Below are positions 54,470 through 63,845 of a stretch of 64,000 nucleotides of DNA, piece by piece. A program made the translations under genes and the position numbers. The stretch spans positions 1 through 64,000 of the forward strand of contig JAUSFL010000008.1 in the NCBI GenBank assembly GCA_030649735.1, in the 5' to 3' direction. The notes below the pieces were generated by a model that was given only the letters and a program-made list of their open reading frames with translations, was not told the DNA's origin and did not search any database. Each line of letters starts with the position of its first letter. Position 1 is the first letter of the stretch. Source of the DNA: Candidatus Iainarchaeum sp. (GTDB taxonomy: Archaea > Iainarchaeota > Iainarchaeia > Iainarchaeales > UBA10191).

Positions 54470-55981
54470 TCATGGCCCCTCGCGGCCTGTGCTAATGCAG
54501 ATCGCATTGCACGCTCCTGGATTTTGGCAAGAATCTATTGTTGAAGGATTATTGTCATTGCACTCTGAGCTTGAAAAACAGTAAGGAGTTGTGCAGTTTC
54601 CATTGCAGACTACTTGAGTTGGTTGGCAATTTCTTCCAATATTTATTTCGGCAGAGTAAATATTCTGTATTTCGCTTAGCGAGAGCTGCCGCCCGTAAAT
54701 TTTTAAGTTATCTATTCTTCCATTAAATGTTCCGCTGAATGGAATGCTTCCTGACTGGTATGCCCCGTAAGTTGTTCCAATAAGCAAGTCTCTAGTTGCA
54801 GTTACGTCAATTTTTGGAGTGTTCTCATCGTAATCAGTCCAACTATTTGGGTAGGTTACAGTGTAATTCCTCAAGCCGCCGTCAATTATTGTAATGATTT
54901 TTATTGAATCAGCAGCTCTTTCGACAGTATAAGCCAAGTGGTGCCAGTTTCCGTCCATCCAACTGCCGCCTAAGTTTCCGAGCCAAGCACTGAATGCCTG
55001 GTTTGGCGGAGGGCTTATTGGCGAAGTGTGCCTTATGTCTCCGTCAGTAACATAAAACCTGTCCCTGTAAATTCCGAAGCCCGGGCCCACATCATAATAT
55101 GCATTTGCAAGCACTGCCTGCTGTAAAGTGTCGCCAGTGTTCAATGCCTTTGCCCAAAGCATTACTGTAAAGTTTGTGTTTTTTCCAAAGTTCAGGCTTT
55201 CGTTTCCTTGGATTTTTGGAATTTTGACATAGCTATTTGCTCGCCTGTCAATCACAAGCACTTTTCCCCTGACTGGATCGTTTTCTATGGCTGCGCTTCC
55301 AACAATTATTCCGTTGTTTCCAAGCCCTGACTTGTCCAGCACGTCAGTTTCAAAAGGCAAGAATAGTCTCAAATCGCTTGTGCATTTTGAAGTGTCAAAT
55401 GACTTGCAGTCTGTGCTGCATCCTAAAGTCCCGCTAATAAATCCTTGGGTCTGGCAAGTCTGTCCGCTAAGATCATTGCTGTCACAGACTTCGATGCCTT
55501 GCTTTATTCCATCGCCGCATTTGAAATTGTAGCATTCTGAAGTGTCAAACTGGCAGTCTTTGCAATATAGACCTCCGCCATCAAATCCCAGGTCTTTGCA
55601 AAGCTTTCCGCCAAGATTTGTACTGTCGCATTGCTCATTTTCGTCAATTATTTCATTGCCGCAAACTGCTTGAGTACTGCATGCTCCCAGGCAGCATCTT
55701 GAAGTGTCGCTTGCTGAAGTCCAGTCTTGCGAGCAGTTTTCTTTTTCATTGCATGTAATTCCATTTTGCTCTTGGCAGGTTTTCAGTGTTTGCTGGCAGT
55801 CTTGAGAGCAAGTGTATTGGTCTTCTCCTTGTTCGCAAACTCTGTTTCCGCAATATGCTGGCGGGTTAACGCATCCTGAAATCAAAATTAAGACGCTAGC
55901 AAACAATAACACAAATAATGCTTTTTTCAAAACCCACCAACTCCTTTTTAGGAAAATTAAATATTTAAAGCTGAAATGCAC
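54470..55981 (-). CDS. lipoprotein-like surface protein with Cys-rich repeats and LamG (concanavalin-like) domain
   Basis: LILISGCVNPP lipobox; CGNRVCEQGEDQYTCSQDC; LRLFLPFETDVLDKSGLGNNGIIVGSA...NFTVMLWAKA...RIDNLKIYGRQLSLSEIQNIY; C-terminal Cys repeat. Confidence 0.85.
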   Translation of the reverse strand: MHFSFKYLIFLKRSWWVLKKALFVLLFASVLILISGCVNPPAYCGNRVCEQGEDQYTCSQDCQQTLKTCQEQNGITCNEKENCSQDWTSASDTSRCCLGACSTQAVCGNEIIDENEQCDSTNLGGKLCKDLGFDGGGLYCKDCQFDTSECYNFKCGDGIKQGIEVCDSNDLSGQTCQTQGFISGTLGCSTDCKSFDTSKCTSDLRLFLPFETDVLDKSGLGNNGIIVGSAAIENDPVRGKVLVIDRRANSYVKIPKIQGNESLNFGKNTNFTVMLWAKALNTGDTLQQAVLANAYYDVGPGFGIYRDRFYVTDGDIRHTSPISPPPNQAFSAWLGNLGGSWMDGNWHHLAYTVERAADSIKIITIIDGGLRNYTVTYPNSWTDYDENTPKIDVTATRDLLIGTTYGAYQSGSIPFSGTFNGRIDNLKIYGRQLSLSEIQNIYSAEINIGRNCQPTQVVCNGNCTTPYCFSSSECNDNNPSTIDSCQNPGACNAICISTGREGP

Positions 55982-55993
55982 AGCAGAAGCAAT

Positions 55994-58432
55994 TTATTTT
56001 GCTTCCACTGTCTCGCTAACCTTAAACCTATACCCAGGCAGCATGAAATATGCAGTTCCATCAGCAACCCTGGCAATTGCTCCAGTGTCATCGTATGCTT
56101 TTGCATAGTATGAGTCTGGAGTGTCGCTCCTTAGGTTCAATGCCTGGATGTTTGTTTCGGCAATTCTTTGGACTTGGTAGTTATATCCTGACAAATTTGC
56201 GTTAGGCAATGTTATCAAGCTGCCATCACCGTATTTTGTTGAAATATGCGTTTTCCATTCAATATTTCCATTGGCTTGTCCATTGCCTTGCGCTCCAGAA
56301 TCTATGTAAAATTCTGCAACATAAAAAGTGTTGTCTGCTGCATCTCCACCAAATGCTGCATCATCTGGCCTGTAGTATTTTGTTTCTGGCATTGCATCTT
56401 CTCCAGCATCAGTTCCGTCAAACACTATTTTTTTGTTGAGCTGTGTTATAAATTCTTGGTTTGCCATTACTAGCCATAGTTTGCTGTCCCCTTCTCTGAC
56501 TTGCAAGGCATACTTGAAGGTTTGCGAGTTTGCGCCTTCTAATTTGAAAGCCTCTCCTCTTGGATCCCAAACTTGTCCATCAGTGTAGTAGACATATCCA
56601 TAACCTGGCGAGGTTGTGTTAAAGTCTCCAATGTACGCCAATGAATCTGCGCTTCTGGTTGTTGAGTTCTTCAAGAATTGGATTTTTCCGCTTGTTGAAA
56701 GCCAGACAAAATTTGGCCCTCGTCCAGTTATGTTGTAAGTCACTCCGTCAACACTAAGACCGCTTGGGTTTCCCAATTGCCTTATGCCTGCCACTATTAT
56801 TGAATTGCTGTCTATAATCCATTGTCTTCCGTTAATGATGTTTCCGCTGTTGACTTTAAAGTTAGTATCTGTTTTGTCGACTTGGTAGTTGATTGTTTTG
56901 CCGTCGAAAGTGAATGCCTGCCACTGGTCGTCTGAGGCATCGCCCTTGTAAACCATTGGGATTGAATGCGATACTCCGTCAAGGTCGGCATATCCTATTT
57001 GCTCTCTTCCGATTTTAATTTCTGTGACTTGCTGGGCTGGCCCAAATCCATTGAAGGTTATGCTGTATTTTCCGCCAGTAAATTGTGCTGTTTGGCTGCC
57101 ATCCAATGCTTTTGCGTCAGTCCATCTTTGGTTGGAATTGCTGATTTCAATTCCAGTCAAGGCATCGTTGGCTATAATTAATTTTGCTTTCCAATCGTAA
57201 ATTCCAGTAGTGTTGTTTGGGTCGTAAGGGAATCCTTTATTGTTGAAAATTGTCATTACTGGTTGGCTCAAGTCTGATTCTTTTCCTAAAACAAGCTGTT
57301 CATTTCCGGCCGAATCCAGTTTGAGCGATATGACTGAGTATAATTTTCCAAGTAATGGAATGTTTCGGTTAGTTCCTGGAGTTATTGCATTGAAAGCAAC
57401 AACATACTTGAATGCTCCAGCATCAATGTCCAATGCCATTCTTTCAACGTCTGATGCTGTATTGAATCTTGGGTTTGCCGCAAGAACAAGTTTTTCTCCA
57501 TCAAGCAAACTAGTCAATTCTGTTTTGGTTAAAGTTTTATTGAATCCTGCTTCTAAAGGAGTTGTTGCAGAAATCAAATTGTCGCTTAAAGTGACTTTAG
57601 AGCTTGTTTGAACGCAGTCTTGCGGGCAGTTTGAAGTGTCTTCTGTTGCTTCGCAAACGCTGTTTCCGCAAATTACTTCCCTAATGTATTCTTTTCCGTC
57701 CTTGGAATAGCTTTCAAAAACGCTTGATCCTCCAATGCTTCCATCTCCTGAAAGATAGCTTAATTTCAGCACGCAGGCTCCTGAATTGTAAACATTCCTT
57801 TGGAAGTAATACCTGCAGTTTGTTCCTTGATTATAGTCAATGCCTTCAGAGCACACCGGCTCGCCGTAAGTTGCCAGGTGGATGTTAAAGCAATTGTCAA
57901 AGCCCGAAGCTAGTTGGGCACTGTTTAATTGTCCTTTTCCATCCTTGAAGTTTGCCCAAACCCTGTGGCTGTCTCCGCCAGCTCCAATGTCAAATGACGG
58001 CGCTGAATATTGCTGGGTTTGGATTTTTTCCAATACTACTATAAAATTCTGATTTTCTTTAAGAACTATTTCAATTTCTTTTTTTGGGTAATATCCATCC
58101 AGGCTTACATTGGCCAAGTAAGTGTCTGGCTCAAGCACGAATGTCGCGCTTCCTTCAGAGTCTGTGCTTCTTTGATCTGTTGGCCCATAGTTAACTCCGT
58201 CAACTTCAATCATTGCGCCCGCAAGCGGATTTCCGTCAACATCTTTTGCCATGAATTTTAATTCAAAAGTCTGCTGTGTGCAATCTTGTGCGCAGTATGT
58301 TGGAAGGCTTGAATTGTCTTCAAGGCCTTGCTCGCAAATATTGTCTCCACAGACTGGATTGGGCGGGTTTACGCATCCAGAAATCAATATTATTCCGACA
58401 GCAAACAGTAATGCAAATAGAACTTTTTTCAA
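55994..58432 (-). CDS. large lipoprotein-like surface protein (Cys-rich repeats, CarboxypepD-reg-like segment, beta-rich domains)
   Basis: IILISGCVNPPNPVCGDNICEQG; GNPLAGAMIEVDGVNYGPTDQRSTDSEGSATFVLEPDTYLANVSLDGYYPKK; CGNSVCEATEDTSNCPQDC. Confidence 0.8.
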   Translation of the reverse strand: MKKVLFALLFAVGIILISGCVNPPNPVCGDNICEQGLEDNSSLPTYCAQDCTQQTFELKFMAKDVDGNPLAGAMIEVDGVNYGPTDQRSTDSEGSATFVLEPDTYLANVSLDGYYPKKEIEIVLKENQNFIVVLEKIQTQQYSAPSFDIGAGGDSHRVWANFKDGKGQLNSAQLASGFDNCFNIHLATYGEPVCSEGIDYNQGTNCRYYFQRNVYNSGACVLKLSYLSGDGSIGGSSVFESYSKDGKEYIREVICGNSVCEATEDTSNCPQDCVQTSSKVTLSDNLISATTPLEAGFNKTLTKTELTSLLDGEKLVLAANPRFNTASDVERMALDIDAGAFKYVVAFNAITPGTNRNIPLLGKLYSVISLKLDSAGNEQLVLGKESDLSQPVMTIFNNKGFPYDPNNTTGIYDWKAKLIIANDALTGIEISNSNQRWTDAKALDGSQTAQFTGGKYSITFNGFGPAQQVTEIKIGREQIGYADLDGVSHSIPMVYKGDASDDQWQAFTFDGKTINYQVDKTDTNFKVNSGNIINGRQWIIDSNSIIVAGIRQLGNPSGLSVDGVTYNITGRGPNFVWLSTSGKIQFLKNSTTRSADSLAYIGDFNTTSPGYGYVYYTDGQVWDPRGEAFKLEGANSQTFKYALQVREGDSKLWLVMANQEFITQLNKKIVFDGTDAGEDAMPETKYYRPDDAAFGGDAADNTFYVAEFYIDSGAQGNGQANGNIEWKTHISTKYGDGSLITLPNANLSGYNYQVQRIAETNIQALNLRSDTPDSYYAKAYDDTGAIARVADGTAYFMLPGYRFKVSETVEAK

Positions 58433-58517
58433 AACCCACCAACTCCTCTATAAAAATAATCCTTGAAACAAGAAGCGGTTAAGGAGTATATTAACTTTTT
58501 GTGCGGCTTTTAAGCGC

Positions 58518-60854
58518 TTAAAGGTTTGCCGGCAAATCAGTTTGCGGTTCCTTGATTGCCGATTTTACTTTAATCAGGATTGCGGCCTGTATCAGGAACA
58601 CAATTACTGCTCCGGGAATTTCGAAAAGCCTTGCCGCAATCAAAGGCGCTATCATGAAAGTTGCCGCAATGAAAATTATAAGCAAGTACTTGAGCTTTGA
58701 CTTTTGGGTCTGCATGAAATGGTTTGTTATTACTGTAGTAAAAACTAGCATTGTTATTGCAGCCAATATCAGGAAGTACAAAAATCCATTCTCTGCTGTC
58801 GCCTGCTTTCCTGCAATGCTTTCAATTTTTTTGGATTCTATTGGCAGTCCGGGAATCACGTTGATTATTGGCTTTCTTACTGTGAATTCTCCGCTGATTT
58901 TTTGGCCTTCAAATGATATTTGGAAGAAAGTCTTGCCGTACTTGTCTACCTTGAACACAAATTCTCCATTTGAGTTTGGCTGCAGCACTTGGGTGTTGCC
59001 GTCAGGCGTGGCAAGCAATAATGTCGCGTTTTTTATTGTGTTCTGGTTTTCGTCCTTTACTGAGATTATTTGATAGTCTCCAACATCAACCACTTGGCTA
59101 AAAACTGCCTTTGGAGGCTGTTTTTTCGCTGGAGGCAGTATTACCGGCTTGTTAGTGTCTTTTTTTGGTGGTGGCACTGGTGGAGTAATTCCCCCGCCTG
59201 GTGGATTTCCGCCTCCCCCTCCTCCGCCCCCACCGCCGCCTGGAGGTTGTGTTATTGTATTGTTTACGCAGGTTGAACTGCAAGTTCCCGGGCTAGTGCA
59301 AGAATCTGATGTGGAAGGATTGCTGTCGTCGCATTCTGCGCCTGAAGAGCAGTAAGGAGTTGTGCAATTGTGGTTGCAGAGTATTTGGTTTCCAGTGCAA
59401 GTAGGGTCTGTTGGGGAATTGACGCACAGCGCATTGCACAATCCTGCATTAGTGCAAATGTCCAATGTTAAAGGATTATTGTCATTACATTGTGAACTCA
59501 AAGTGCATGTTGGGGTAATGCAGCTTCCAGTGCACAGGATTTTTCCCGCAGTGCAAGTAATTAAAGTGTGAGTGCAGGAAGCAGTGCAAGAGCTTGGGTT
59601 ATTGCAAACGTCAATAGTGTTTGCGTTGCTGTCATTGCACGCTGAATTTGAATCGCATGCTGGAACTATGCAGTTTCCGCTGCAAGACAATTGAGGCAGG
59701 ACACAGATTGCCTGGTTTGTTTTGGCAGGCAGGTTCGCGCTTAAATTGCTTTCATTGCCTACATTGTCTAATGCGCTGATTTGGAAGTTGTAGTCTGTGT
59801 TTGGCGTTAAGCCAGTTACCTTGTATGTTATTGCCGGCTTGTTGACTTTTGTCACTAGCGCTCCGTTAGAGTATATCCTGTAAGCGTTCAAGTCTGTTTC
59901 AAAGTTTGCGTTCCATGCTAGAGTGACGCTGTTTGAGTCTTTTGTTGAAACCCTAAAGTTTGCCGGGGTGTTTGGCGCATTATTGTCTGCTGAAATCGGG
60001 TCTGTTTTAATTGTTAGAATGCCGCTTCTTGGGCTTTCGTTTTGAGTATGGTCTAGCGCTGTGATTTGGAAATTATAATCAGTGTTTTGCGTCAAGCCAA
60101 TTGCAGTATAGGTTACTGTTGGCTTGTTGACCTTAATCAAAAAAACATTGTTTTTGTAAATTTTGTAAGAGTTCAGGTCTGTTTCAGGGTTTGCGTTCCA
60201 TGCAAGGCTTATGCTGTTTGTGGTGTTGGCTGTAGAGCGAAAGTTTGTTGGGGTGTTTGGCGCATTGGTGTCTGTTGTTGTCTGGCAGTATGAATTGCAA
60301 GATCTTGGCTGAATGCAAGTTTGGCCTGCACTGCAGTTTGAATCCTGAAAGCACGCTATTGCATGGCCGCAGGTTGAAACTGACCCATTGGTTACTGTAA
60401 ATGCAATTGGCTGGCCTGAATTGTTTGAAAGCTGTGCATTGACAATGCTTATTCCGCTGAAATAGTTGGTGTCTGCATGAAATGTCAGTGTTGCCAGAGT
60501 TCCATTTGCTGTAATCCCCCCAGTAGCCATGCGCACGCAAGTTAATTTTGAAACAAGGCCAGAACCGACTTGCCAAATGCTTGAGTCAGTGCACCAAACG
60601 TCAGTTCCGACAATCCCTATAATATTTGCAAATCTTGCGTTCTGGAATGAAATAACGCTTCCATTGTACTGCACGTCAAATTGGAAGCCGTAAAGATTGC
60701 TGATGCTTTCTGCGGAAATGTTCACGTCAAAGTTGGAATTCAATGACGCAATGCCGTTTGCTGGCTGGACCAAGAGCTTTTGCGCGCTTACAAGCGCGGC
60801 TGGTAGAAGAAAACAAAGCAGAATTGCAGTTAAAAACAATGAAGCCTTTCGCAT
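58518..60854 (-). CDS. cohesin-domain surface protein: signal peptide, cohesin, 2x FN3, 3x Cys-rich repeat, Gly/Pro linker, C-terminal TM helices
   Basis: LLVQPANGIASLNSNFDVNISAESISNLYGFQFDVQYNGSVISFQNARF... cohesin-like; two about 90-aa FN3 repeats; TM segments LYFLILAAITMLVFTTVI, YLLIIFIAATFMIAPLIAA, AVIVFLIQAAILI. Confidence 0.85.
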   Translation of the reverse strand: MRKASLFLTAILLCFLLPAALVSAQKLLVQPANGIASLNSNFDVNISAESISNLYGFQFDVQYNGSVISFQNARFANIIGIVGTDVWCTDSSIWQVGSGLVSKLTCVRMATGGITANGTLATLTFHADTNYFSGISIVNAQLSNNSGQPIAFTVTNGSVSTCGHAIACFQDSNCSAGQTCIQPRSCNSYCQTTTDTNAPNTPTNFRSTANTTNSISLAWNANPETDLNSYKIYKNNVFLIKVNKPTVTYTAIGLTQNTDYNFQITALDHTQNESPRSGILTIKTDPISADNNAPNTPANFRVSTKDSNSVTLAWNANFETDLNAYRIYSNGALVTKVNKPAITYKVTGLTPNTDYNFQISALDNVGNESNLSANLPAKTNQAICVLPQLSCSGNCIVPACDSNSACNDSNANTIDVCNNPSSCTASCTHTLITCTAGKILCTGSCITPTCTLSSQCNDNNPLTLDICTNAGLCNALCVNSPTDPTCTGNQILCNHNCTTPYCSSGAECDDSNPSTSDSCTSPGTCSSTCVNNTITQPPGGGGGGGGGGGNPPGGGITPPVPPPKKDTNKPVILPPAKKQPPKAVFSQVVDVGDYQIISVKDENQNTIKNATLLLATPDGNTQVLQPNSNGEFVFKVDKYGKTFFQISFEGQKISGEFTVRKPIINVIPGLPIESKKIESIAGKQATAENGFLYFLILAAITMLVFTTVITNHFMQTQKSKLKYLLIIFIAATFMIAPLIAARLFEIPGAVIVFLIQAAILIKVKSAIKEPQTDLPANL

Positions 60855-60898
60855 AATATACCTAATTTAGAAAGCTCTTTGCCTATTTATACTTTTTC

Positions 60899-63019
60899 TC
60901 AGCATGCTGTTCCAAAATGCTTTGCAACTTCCTGCAGGTCTTGGATGTTGACTCCGTCATTTCCTATAATGTCTGCTGGGTCTCCTGTTGTATTGCCTAA
61001 GCGCAGGCTGACAAAGACCAGGTCAAACACGTCAACTTTTAAGTCCAAGGTTAAGTCAAAGCAGGTTCTTGCCGGGATTGGAGTGTGGGTGCAGTTTGCA
61101 GTGCAATTGCTTGGATTATTGCAAGTGTCTGTTGTCAAAGAATTGCTGTCGTTGCAGGCTGCATTGCTAGAGCAGGCTGGAGTAATGCAAGAGCTGCTGC
61201 ACAATATTTGCGGCAAAACACAAGAAGGTAAACTGCCAGAATACTCGAAAGCGCCAATGTCTGGAGAATCAATTATTGGGTTTCCTGCATAGTCGCTTGT
61301 CAAGCCCACGTCAGTTCCTGCATTGATTGCCTGGCTGCCTTGCTTTAGCTGGAAGTCTCCTGGATTTCTGAAGCTTCCGCTTGCATTAATTAATTGCGGG
61401 TCAGCAAGCCAGGAGTTGGAGTCGCCAGACTTTACAACCCAATCAGCATAGTTTGTCGAGTCTTTTCCAAGCCAGCGGAACTTGTTGTTTCCGCTTAAAG
61501 TGTCTGGCCAGTACAAGTTGTTGCTGATTTTAATTAAATTATTGCTAGTGACTGCAGGCATTGGGGTGTAATAGAAATTTCCACCGCTTTTTGGATTTAG
61601 CGTTATATTATTCTTTGCGGTAAACCCAATTCCTCCAGGCAAGTGAGGATAATAAATTTTAGAACTTGGCGGGTTTTCGTATCTTCCCAAATCTGCCCAG
61701 AAAATTCCCCCAGCAACATCATGGAATACATTGTTGTAAATTGCTGCAGGCACTTCCCCGCCATCTCCTTTGCCGCGAATTGCATAGCCTACTCCAAGGG
61801 TTTCCGGATTGTTTTTTGTGCCAATGTTGCTGAAAATATTATTATAAATTTGCCAATTGTTTGAGCGCGAGCCAAAGTTTGCAGCATTAGTTCCATGCTT
61901 TGCAACTCCGTAATGCAAGTGTGCGCCTTCATCATCATTTAAGTTTGTAAAACTGTTGCGGCGAATTGTTACGTTTTCCATTTTTCCAGTCGAGCCCATG
62001 TAATCAATTACTCCATCGCCATGCCAGTCGTGAATATTAGAATCTTCAATAAGCAGGTTTGACATGTTTTGCCCGCCGATTGCATGCGCGTCATTATTTC
62101 CAAAAATATTGTAGTGGCGCTGTTCTCCACTGTAGATTTCAACTTTACTGAATGTCCAGTTATTGTGAGCTGCTCCGCCGCCGTAAATTGCATAGCTTCC
62201 GCAGGTTACATCGTGAATTTTCACGTTTTCAATTAGGATGTTGTCAGTGCTTGCTCCTTGCGCATAAACTGCAGTGTAATTCCCGAATGCAATTTCGCTG
62301 TCAATGATTGAGATATTTGAGGTTGGTGTTGGGTTTGGGTCTGTGGCTTTTACCAATCGAATTCCGCCGTCATTTCCAGAGCCTCCAAAAAGCCTTAGGT
62401 TTCTGTATTCAATGAAATCACTTCCCCGGTTATACCAGGAGGCAGTCCAATTCCAGTAAATGTCATCCAATTTTCCAAGTGGATTGACATACATTATTCT
62501 TGCATTTGCGTCAATCCATGCGCTGCCGTCAGTATTTGCAACTTCGCTTGGAGTATTTACATTATTGTAAGACCGCAATAAAATTGGAGAATTTGCGGGG
62601 TCGCCCTGCCAAAAATAAGCACCGCCGTATCCTCCAGTTGGCGCTGAAAAGCTTCCGTCATGCAAATCAGTGAATGACGCTTTCAGCATCTTTCTTGCTG
62701 CAATAATAACTCCTGGATTGTTTGGGCAGTTTCCGCGGATTATAATATGCTTGTCGGCAGTGCCGCTTGCAAGCGTTTGGTTAGAGCCATAATTGAAATC
62801 CACTGGATAAATGAAGGTTCCGCAAATGTAAAGAGTGTCGCCCGCCTTAACGCCGCTAGCGCCCCACACAATTTTTTGAAAGCCGTCAAAAGCAGTTTCA
62901 AAACTAGTTCCGTTTTCTGTTGCATTCTCAAATTGGGTTGCAGGCCTTACAAACCAGTCTGTCGCAAAAGCAAAGCCTGAAAGAAAAAGTAATGCAACAA
63001 TCGCAAATGCAAATCGCAT
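60899..63019 (-). CDS. secreted right-handed parallel beta-helix protein with Cys-rich repeat and C-terminal dockerin-like domain
   Basis: Signal peptide; pectate-lyase-like beta-helix; CFDLTLDLKVDVFDLVFVSLRLGNTTGDPADIIGNDGVNIQDLQEVAKHFGTAC = two degenerate dockerin Ca loops. Confidence 0.85.
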   Translation of the reverse strand: MRFAFAIVALLFLSGFAFATDWFVRPATQFENATENGTSFETAFDGFQKIVWGASGVKAGDTLYICGTFIYPVDFNYGSNQTLASGTADKHIIIRGNCPNNPGVIIAARKMLKASFTDLHDGSFSAPTGGYGGAYFWQGDPANSPILLRSYNNVNTPSEVANTDGSAWIDANARIMYVNPLGKLDDIYWNWTASWYNRGSDFIEYRNLRLFGGSGNDGGIRLVKATDPNPTPTSNISIIDSEIAFGNYTAVYAQGASTDNILIENVKIHDVTCGSYAIYGGGAAHNNWTFSKVEIYSGEQRHYNIFGNNDAHAIGGQNMSNLLIEDSNIHDWHGDGVIDYMGSTGKMENVTIRRNSFTNLNDDEGAHLHYGVAKHGTNAANFGSRSNNWQIYNNIFSNIGTKNNPETLGVGYAIRGKGDGGEVPAAIYNNVFHDVAGGIFWADLGRYENPPSSKIYYPHLPGGIGFTAKNNITLNPKSGGNFYYTPMPAVTSNNLIKISNNLYWPDTLSGNNKFRWLGKDSTNYADWVVKSGDSNSWLADPQLINASGSFRNPGDFQLKQGSQAINAGTDVGLTSDYAGNPIIDSPDIGAFEYSGSLPSCVLPQILCSSSCITPACSSNAACNDSNSLTTDTCNNPSNCTANCTHTPIPARTCFDLTLDLKVDVFDLVFVSLRLGNTTGDPADIIGNDGVNIQDLQEVAKHFGTAC

Positions 63020-63080: not shown

Positions 63081-63845
63081 TTATCTCTTTTTCTTTGCAA
63101 AGACCTTGTCGAGGTTTCTTGCCAAGTCCAGCACTTCAACCGGGATTGCAATGACTACTGTGTTGCTTGAAGTTGGCCCGAGGCCGTCCAAGGTCTGCAA
63201 AGTCCTGAGTTGCATTGCTCCGGGGCTTTTTGCCATTACTGAGGCTGCCTTTGCCAGGTTTTCCGAGGCCATTCTGTCTCCCTCGGACTTTATGATTGTG
63301 GCCCTTTTTTCCCTTTCACTGGAAGCCTGCCTGCTCATAAGCCTTTTCAAGTCTTCAGGCATGTCAATGTCTTGCAGCTTGATGTCTGTGACTTCAATGC
63401 CCCAGTTTTTTGAGGCTTCTTCAACAATTTGCTCAATGTCTTTTCCAATGCGCTCTCTTTCGCCAAGCACTTGGTCAAGGGTCATGCTGCCTACAACATC
63501 CCTTAATGCTGTCTGCGCGTATTGTGAAACAGCGTACTGGAAGTCCTGCACTTTAATGATTGCGGTTGCAGCGTCAACAACCTTGAAGTAGACCACTCCG
63601 TTAATGTTCATTGGAACATTGTCTTTTGAGATCACTTGCTGTCTTGGAATGTCAATTGTCAGAATTCTCATGTCTATTTTGTGCACTATGTCAAATATTG
63701 GGACCACAAAATTCAGCCCTGGTTGCAAGGTTCCCTTGTATCTTCCAAGCCTGAATTTCACCCCGGTTTCCCACTGGTTGACAATGCGAATGCTTGCAAG
63801 GATTATGACAATTATTACAATTAGCAAAATTATTTCCAGAACCAT
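63081..63845 (-). CDS. stomatin/prohibitin (SPFH) family slipin
   Basis: IRIVNQWETGVKFRLGRYKGTLQPGLNFVVPIFDIVHKIDMRILTIDIPRQQVISKDNVPMNINGVVYFKVVD. Confidence 0.95.
   Translation of the reverse strand: MVLEIILLIVIIVIILASIRIVNQWETGVKFRLGRYKGTLQPGLNFVVPIFDIVHKIDMRILTIDIPRQQVISKDNVPMNINGVVYFKVVDAATAIIKVQDFQYAVSQYAQTALRDVVGSMTLDQVLGERERIGKDIEQIVEEASKNWGIEVTDIKLQDIDMPEDLKRLMSRQASSEREKRATIIKSEGDRMASENLAKAASVMAKSPGAMQLRTLQTLDGLGPTSSNTVVIAIPVEVLDLARNLDKVFAKKKR

What the first reader, a model, noticed from the sequence alone, without database searches (positions are those of the whole stretch)
58518..63019. Adjacent cohesin-like and dockerin-like proteins: a compact archaeal cell-surface cohesin-dockerin system
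The 58518-60854 protein starts with a cohesin-like domain (LLVQPANGIASLNSNFDVNISAESISNLYGFQFDVQYNGSVISFQNARF...), then two FN3 domains, three Cys-rich repeats, a Gly/Pro linker and C-terminal TM helices. That is a plausible membrane-anchored scaffold. The next gene on the same strand (60899-63019) is a secreted parallel beta-helix (pectate-lyase-like) protein. It ends in DLTLDLKVDVFD...DIIGNDGVNIQD, two loops with dockerin Ca-binding spacing. Cohesin and dockerin modules are established interaction partners in bacterial cellulosomes, and such modules are known in a few archaea. A scaffold and its client side by side in a small archaeal genome suggests a one-receptor/one-client surface complex for polysaccharide binding, degradation or host attachment.
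Basis: partly seen in the sequence, partly recalled or inferred. Interest (0 to 1): 0.82.

Follow-up and report, generated by a model that had tools for sequence, protein, structure and literature searches.

The report
Cellulosome-like surface display in a Diapherotrites archaeon
A tiny, uncultured archaeon appears to carry a cellulosome-like "plug and socket" system, with 4 membrane-anchored sockets and at least 21 secreted proteins bearing matching plugs, several of them predicted sugar-polymer-degrading enzymes, so that it could hold its enzymes on its own surface.

Summary
In detail: 58518-60854(-) encodes a signal peptide, one cohesin, two FN3 domains, three Cys repeats and C-terminal TM helices. 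60899-63019(-) encodes a secreted beta-helix protein ending in a two-loop dockerin. Pfam alone is borderline for the cohesin and silent for the dockerin; profiles from the same genome and its relatives are decisive, also with the window sequence left out. The "one receptor / one client" reading is wrong. The 1.28-Mb Diapherotrites (DPANN) genome encodes 4 single-cohesin proteins, all with a C-terminal TM helix, and 21 dockerin proteins in two classes, none (of 20 complete) with a C-terminal TM helix. Clients include GH10, GH18, GH39, GH88, heparinase II/III, an SASA esterase and many beta-helix/LamG proteins. The pair is duplicated elsewhere in the genome. Cohesin and dockerin co-occur across 86 other genomes of the phylum (P = 8e-4) and independently across 371 genomes of a Nanoarchaeota-type DPANN phylum (P = 7e-10). 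Best reading: cell-surface enzyme display on monovalent cohesin anchors, without a multi-cohesin scaffoldin. Archaeal cohesin-dockerin pairs are known; I found no report of one in Diapherotrites or other DPANN. Binding, specificity and substrates are inferred, not shown.

The parts
58518..60854 (-). Cohesin anchor protein, 778 aa: signal peptide, cohesin, 2 FN3, 3 Cys repeats, Gly/Pro linker, C-terminal TM helices
60366..60785 (-). Cohesin domain (residues 24-163), with the Cys pair (WCTDSS...LTCVRM) typical of the large-type cohesins here
59733..60272 (-). Two FN3 domains (residues about 195-286 and 296-374)
59250..59705 (-). Three Cys-rich repeats (about residues 384-535), shared with clients and with the lipoprotein at 54470-55981
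58572..58784 (-). C-terminal TM helices (residues 691-761), the membrane anchor
   Evidence: hydropathy
60899..63019 (-). Secreted right-handed beta-helix client, 706 aa, signal peptide, no C-terminal TM; upstream gene of the pair
60902..61069 (-). Class A dockerin (CFDLTLDLKVDVFDLVFVSLRLGNTTGDPADIIGNDGVNIQDLQEVAKHFGTAC), two F-hand loops flanked by terminal Cys
61076..61222 (-). One Cys-rich repeat (residues 600-648), 71% identical to one in the cohesin protein
55994..58432 (-). Neighbouring predicted lipoprotein (LISGC lipobox-like), CarboxypepD_reg domain; probably same surface-gene cluster, no cohesin or dockerin
54470..55981 (-). Neighbouring predicted lipoprotein with LamG domain and the same Cys-rich repeat; no cohesin or dockerin

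Best explanation
A cell-surface protein-display system of the cohesin-dockerin kind. Four proteins, each with a signal peptide, ONE cohesin near the N-terminus and a C-terminal TM helix, stand on the cell membrane as sockets. At least 21 secreted proteins without a C-terminal membrane anchor (GH10, GH18, GH39, GH88, heparinase II/III-type lyase, SASA-type esterase, PHB-depolymerase-like esterase, beta-helix, LamG and Ig-type proteins) carry one dockerin at one end as a plug and are thereby retained at the surface, where they bind and cut polysaccharides. The pair in the window is one socket gene directly downstream of one client gene. Shown here: homology, domain architecture, membrane/secreted partition, paralogous gene pair, co-occurrence across two DPANN phyla. 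Inferred: physical binding, Ca dependence, which dockerin class fits which cohesin, enzyme substrates, benefit to the cell.
For: Homology with window sequences left out and against PDB. 21 full dockerins and exactly 4 cohesins in the genome. All 4 cohesin proteins have a C-terminal TM helix and 0 of 20 dockerin proteins with a complete C-terminus do (P = 9e-5); all 18 with a visible N-terminus have a signal-peptide-like segment. Client enzymes; GH10 and GH18 keep catalytic-type motifs (WDLVNEP/ITELD; DGITMDWE; sequences). Second beta-helix-dockerin + cohesin pair at C24, cohesin proteins 47% identical over 285 aa. Co-occurrence: 3 of the 4 cohesin-bearing relatives have dockerins versus 3 of 82 others (P = 8e-4); in 371 other DPANN genomes 9 hold both against 0.7 expected (P = 7e-10). 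A dockerin gene directly upstream of a cohesin gene recurs in G018 and G316, G378, G379. G013 is a single-contig, 99% complete genome with 3 cohesins and 2 dockerins, so this is not a binning artefact. Specific archaeal cohesin-dockerin bonds have been verified elsewhere (reported in PMC9012536).
Against: No binding data. Loop position 3 of the dockerins is often Thr, Lys or Ile rather than the canonical Asn/Asp, so Ca affinity, especially of class B loop 1, is uncertain. With 4 socket genes for 21 clients, the clients would compete unless sockets are abundant. Three dockerin-positive relatives (61% and 63% complete, and one weak hit) lack a cohesin, 7 of 16 dockerin-positive genomes in the second phylum lack one, and the same-genus G001 (81% complete) has neither. 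AlphaFold models without an alignment were too poor to use (pLDDT 41 and 53).
Confidence: 0.8

Rival explanations
1. Adhesion rather than digestion: the cohesin-dockerin pairs assemble adhesive surface patches (beta-helix, LamG, FN3, Ig domains) for attachment to particles or a host cell, with enzymes a minor cargo.
For: Most class A clients are large beta-helix, LamG, FN3 or Ig-type proteins without an assigned catalytic domain; DPANN are often cell-associated (established knowledge); dockerins in giant proteins have been read as possible adhesins in Omnitrophota (PMC10066038).
Against: Six clients match enzyme families in Pfam (GH10, GH18, GH39, GH88, heparinase II/III, SASA) and others weakly match PHB depolymerase; several carry the dockerin directly after the signal peptide.
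Confidence: 0.3
2. In trans: the dockerin proteins are released and bind cohesins of other cells, or the cohesins capture dockerin proteins of neighbours, so the system links two species.
For: Cohesins and dockerins are found in other microbes; some genomes hold only one of the two families.
Against: Genome-level co-occurrence and repeated gene adjacency within the same genome favour self-pairing.
Confidence: 0.1
3. Both modules are present but do not bind each other: the dockerin acts as a terminal stabilising or Ca-binding module and the cohesin as a generic beta-sandwich.
For: Window cohesin and dockerin are weak or silent against Pfam; position 3 of the Ca loops is degenerate; isolated dockerins exist in some genomes.
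Against: Profiles hit specifically cohesins and dockerins; membrane/secreted complementarity; co-occurrence in two separate phyla.
Confidence: 0.1

Closest known systems
Archaeal non-cellulosomal cohesin-dockerin modules (Archaeoglobus fulgidus; Methanosarcina; ANME archaea, Chadwick et al. 2022 PMC9012536; Peer et al. 2009, cited there)
   Same: Archaeal cohesin and dockerin modules on extracellular proteins; earlier archaeal examples lack multi-cohesin scaffoldins; specific archaeal binding has been verified.
   Different: Here a DPANN archaeon of 1.28 Mb has 21 dockerins on carbohydrate-active enzymes and beta-helix or LamG proteins; common ANME clients are transporter substrate-binding and S-layer proteins, and some ANME have scaffoldins with up to 5 cohesins.
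Single-cohesin cell-surface anchoring proteins of Clostridium cellulosomes (OlpA/OlpC type; own knowledge)
   Same: One cohesin per anchored surface protein, retaining dockerin-bearing enzymes directly on the cell.
   Different: Anchor is a C-terminal TM helix, not SLH repeats; no polyvalent scaffoldin was found in this genome.
GC-type dockerin (NCBIfam NF041540)
   Same: Two F-hand loops; a class B dockerin matches at 18 bits, E 0.0024; Cys near the start and at the end (the latter for the family from memory).
   Different: Below the family cut-off (29 bits); class A does not match; partner cohesins are present here.
Cellulosome-like proteins of reduced-genome CPR bacteria (Shapirobacterales, Roizmanbacterium; PMC9123182)
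   Same: Cohesins, dockerins and GH/PL enzymes in a small-genome lineage.
   Different: Those are bacteria; the present case is a DPANN archaeon.

Membership tests
Cohesin (PF00963) | Score over the curated cut-off or clear homology to cohesins | tested here: met
   24.6 bits over cut-off, 21.0 under it; 3 sister domains at 28-34 bits; profile to PDB cohesin 3l8q 1.3e-13; 132 bits with the window left out
Cohesin (PF00963) | Nine-stranded jelly-roll fold | tested here: inconclusive
   Single-sequence AlphaFold2 model all-beta but pLDDT 41
Cohesin (PF00963) | Binds a dockerin | not testable with these tools
   needs ITC or pulldown
Dockerin type I (PF00404) | Match to the Pfam family model | tested here: not met
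   Window protein: no hit at E<=1. Five other regions of the genome match, four over cut-off, three of those four being dockerins of the family described here and one a divergent C47 protein; the window dockerin is 56-74% identical to those of most class A clients
Dockerin (broad sense) | Two F-hand loops with ligand residues at loop positions 1, 5, 9, 12 and a following helix | tested here: met
   Asp/Asn (one Glu) at positions 1, 5 and 12 of both loops in all 26 sequences; position 9 Asp/Asn in 24 of 26 in each loop; position 3 degenerate; helices in the low-confidence model
Dockerin (broad sense) | Homology to solved dockerins | tested here: met
   5lxv_B 1.8e-7, 2y3n_B 8.6e-6, 2b59_B 2.6e-5
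Cellulosome | Enzymes bearing dockerins | tested here: met
   GH10, GH18, GH39, GH88, heparinase II/III, SASA
Cellulosome | Scaffoldin with several cohesins and a CBM | tested here: not met
   Exactly 4 cohesins, one per protein; no scaffoldin in the 92.7% complete genome
Cellulosome | Cell-surface anchoring of the complex | tested here: met
   C-terminal TM helix in 4 of 4 cohesin proteins by hydropathy
Cellulosome | Cellulose degradation | not tested
   No dedicated search for cellulases; the identified clients suggest xylan-, chitin- and uronate-type polymers (family-level inference)

The most novel reading that the evidence does not exclude
Some DPANN archaea feed on polysaccharides outside any host by means of a scaffoldin-free, cellulosome-like enzyme display. 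It would rest on a distinct cohesin-dockerin subtype: dockerins whose two ends are closed by a conserved Cys pair (25 of 26 at each end) and cohesins with their own conserved Cys pair. Two dockerin classes would match different sockets, so that cargo is sorted on the cell surface.
Probability: 0.35. Interest if true: 0.8.

Novelty: new variant of a known kind. Interest (0 to 1): 0.62.

Why it matters
DPANN archaea are usually seen as reduced symbionts that depend on others for building blocks. A genome of 1.28 Mb that spends at least 25 genes on four membrane sockets and 21 secreted plug-bearing proteins, several of them predicted polysaccharide-degrading enzymes, suggests an active saccharolytic life. 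It also makes the question 'how do DPANN obtain carbon?' testable with purified proteins, without a culture. The co-occurrence in a second DPANN phylum suggests that such systems are scattered across the superphylum and have been overlooked, partly because Pfam's dockerin model sees only 4 of these 21 dockerins.

Tried and rejected
Pfam and NCBIfam alone: too insensitive for the window dockerin. Single-sequence phmmer of the cohesin against PDB: nothing. Viral contigs: no cohesin relative. Synteny with the sister genome: the contig of the nearest L3 relative (L010) ends just upstream of L3, and the neighbouring SPFH gene has only a distant homologue in G001, so an empty site could not be shown. 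PDB matches for the beta-helix group and for three unassigned clients: none. Contamination as explanation: rejected because the cohesin pair sits on the same 149-kb contig as ribosomal protein L3 and because single-contig G013 has both families. Recent horizontal transfer by composition: the cluster has GC (0.42-0.44) like L3 (0.43) and the window (0.41), so no signal. Naming the exact species: not possible, only Candidatus Diapherotrites by L3 (75% to UBA10036).

Full report
OBSERVATION. Transcription runs from the beta-helix/dockerin gene (60899-63019) into the cohesin gene (58518-60854), 44 nt downstream. Two predicted lipoproteins (55994-58432, 54470-55981) follow, then ribosomal protein L3. 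L3 is 75% identical to that of Candidatus Diapherotrites UBA10036, so the organism is a Diapherotrites (DPANN) archaeon; its assembly G000 has 1,281,898 bases in 51 contigs, 92.7% complete.

COHESIN. Pfam is borderline (24.6 bits, 21.0, cut-off 24.1). Three further cohesins of the genome score 28-34 bits. A profile of the related cohesins without the window sequence scores it 132 bits, and 110 bits with its close paralogue also left out; the best reversed sequence scores 6.6. Against PDB the profile's hits are cellulosomal cohesins (3l8q 1.3e-13).

DOCKERIN. Pfam and NCBIfam do not see the window dockerin. It is 56-74% identical to the dockerins of most class A clients of the genome, scores 85.9 bits against the others' profile and 38.1 with all class A rows removed, and the profile hits solved dockerins. 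In 26 aligned sequences the F-hand positions 1, 5 and 12 are Asp/Asn (one Glu) throughout and position 9 in 24 of 26, while position 3 is degenerate. Cys stands at each end in 25 of 26.

THE GENOME-WIDE SYSTEM. The dockerin profile finds 21 full modules and one remnant (C18:8732), the cohesin profile exactly four cohesins. Dockerins fall in two classes. Class A (13) is found mostly at the C-terminus of beta-helix, LamG, FN3 or Ig-type proteins, once at the N-terminus of a GH39. Class B (8) is found on GH10, GH18, SASA esterase, GH88, heparinase II/III-type lyase and three unassigned proteins. Weak PHB-depolymerase-like matches occur in the two C18 clients. All four cohesin proteins have a signal peptide and a C-terminal TM helix. 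All 18 clients with a visible N-terminus have a signal-peptide-like segment and none of 20 with a complete C-terminus has a TM helix there (P = 9e-5). This is what a socket-and-plug display predicts. TM helices and signal peptides were called by simple hydropathy.

PARALOGOUS PAIR. On C24 a beta-helix/dockerin gene is again directly followed by a cohesin gene on the same strand; the two cohesin proteins are 47% identical over 285 aa. On C13 a small (193 aa) and a large (1038 aa) cohesin gene lie in tandem, as in G018, where a dockerin gene precedes them.

CO-OCCURRENCE. Among 86 other genomes of the phylum, cohesins occur in G013, G015, G018, G041 and dockerins in G013, G015, G018, G068, G055 and weakly G037: P = 8e-4; by genus P = 7e-4 without the own genus. 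The same-genus G001 (81% complete) has neither. In an independent set of 371 genomes of a Nanoarchaeota-type phylum, 17 have cohesins, 16 dockerins, 9 both against 0.7 expected: P = 7e-10. Genomes are related, so these P values are optimistic. A dockerin gene directly before a cohesin gene recurs in G316, G378 and G379. G013, a single contig, carries 3 cohesins and 2 dockerins, so mis-binning is not the cause.

MECHANISM. Most likely, monovalent membrane-anchored cohesins retain secreted dockerin proteins on the surface, to bind and degrade polysaccharides. Direct evidence stops at homology, architecture and co-occurrence; binding, Ca dependence, class specificity and substrates are inferred. 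The terminal Cys pair of the dockerins and the Cys pair of the large-type cohesins suggest disulfide-stabilised modules outside the cell; that too is inference.

COMPARISON. Archaeal cohesin-dockerin modules are known from Archaeoglobus, Methanosarcina and ANME, with verified binding (PMC9012536; a Methanosarcina control genome also matched both families). CPR bacteria have cellulosome-like proteins (PMC9123182). In the open library no paper holds both 'dockerin' and 'Diapherotrites', and the few papers that hold dockerin with DPANN, Nanoarchaeota or Woesearchaeota do not appear to describe such a system in these archaea (those not opened were judged by title and abstract). Subscription papers were not searchable. 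It is not a cellulosome in the strict sense, because no multi-cohesin scaffoldin was found.

VERDICT.

Noticed in passing
54470-63019: A Cys-rich repeat of about 48 residues (C..P..C.G.C..P.C...C.D.N...D.C.N...C...C) is shared, at roughly 44-76% identity, by the cohesin protein, several dockerin clients and the LamG lipoprotein; FN3 domains are likewise shared between socket and client proteins, which points to domain shuffling within the genome.
   Followed up: partly
L041 (G000 C47, dockerin match at C47:30708-30854): A subtilisin-like protein of 1343 aa ends in a divergent dockerin-like region (PF00404 23.7 bits) that does not belong to the two classes described.
   Followed up: no
G000:C18:8732-8806 (L071): A dockerin remnant (25 residues, no full ORF), probably a decayed client gene.
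   Followed up: no
L139:1917-3356 (G316:C11): In a Nanoarchaeota-type DPANN genome a protein carries both a dockerin-like region and a cohesin, a possible adaptor, next to further cohesin and dockerin genes.
   Followed up: partly
L069 (G000:C32:12211-19063): Three class A dockerin clients in tandem; two are homologues of the window beta-helix protein (39-46% identity).
   Followed up: partly
63081-63845: SPFH/Band 7 protein next to the pair; the same-genus genome has only a 26% identical homologue.
   Followed up: partly
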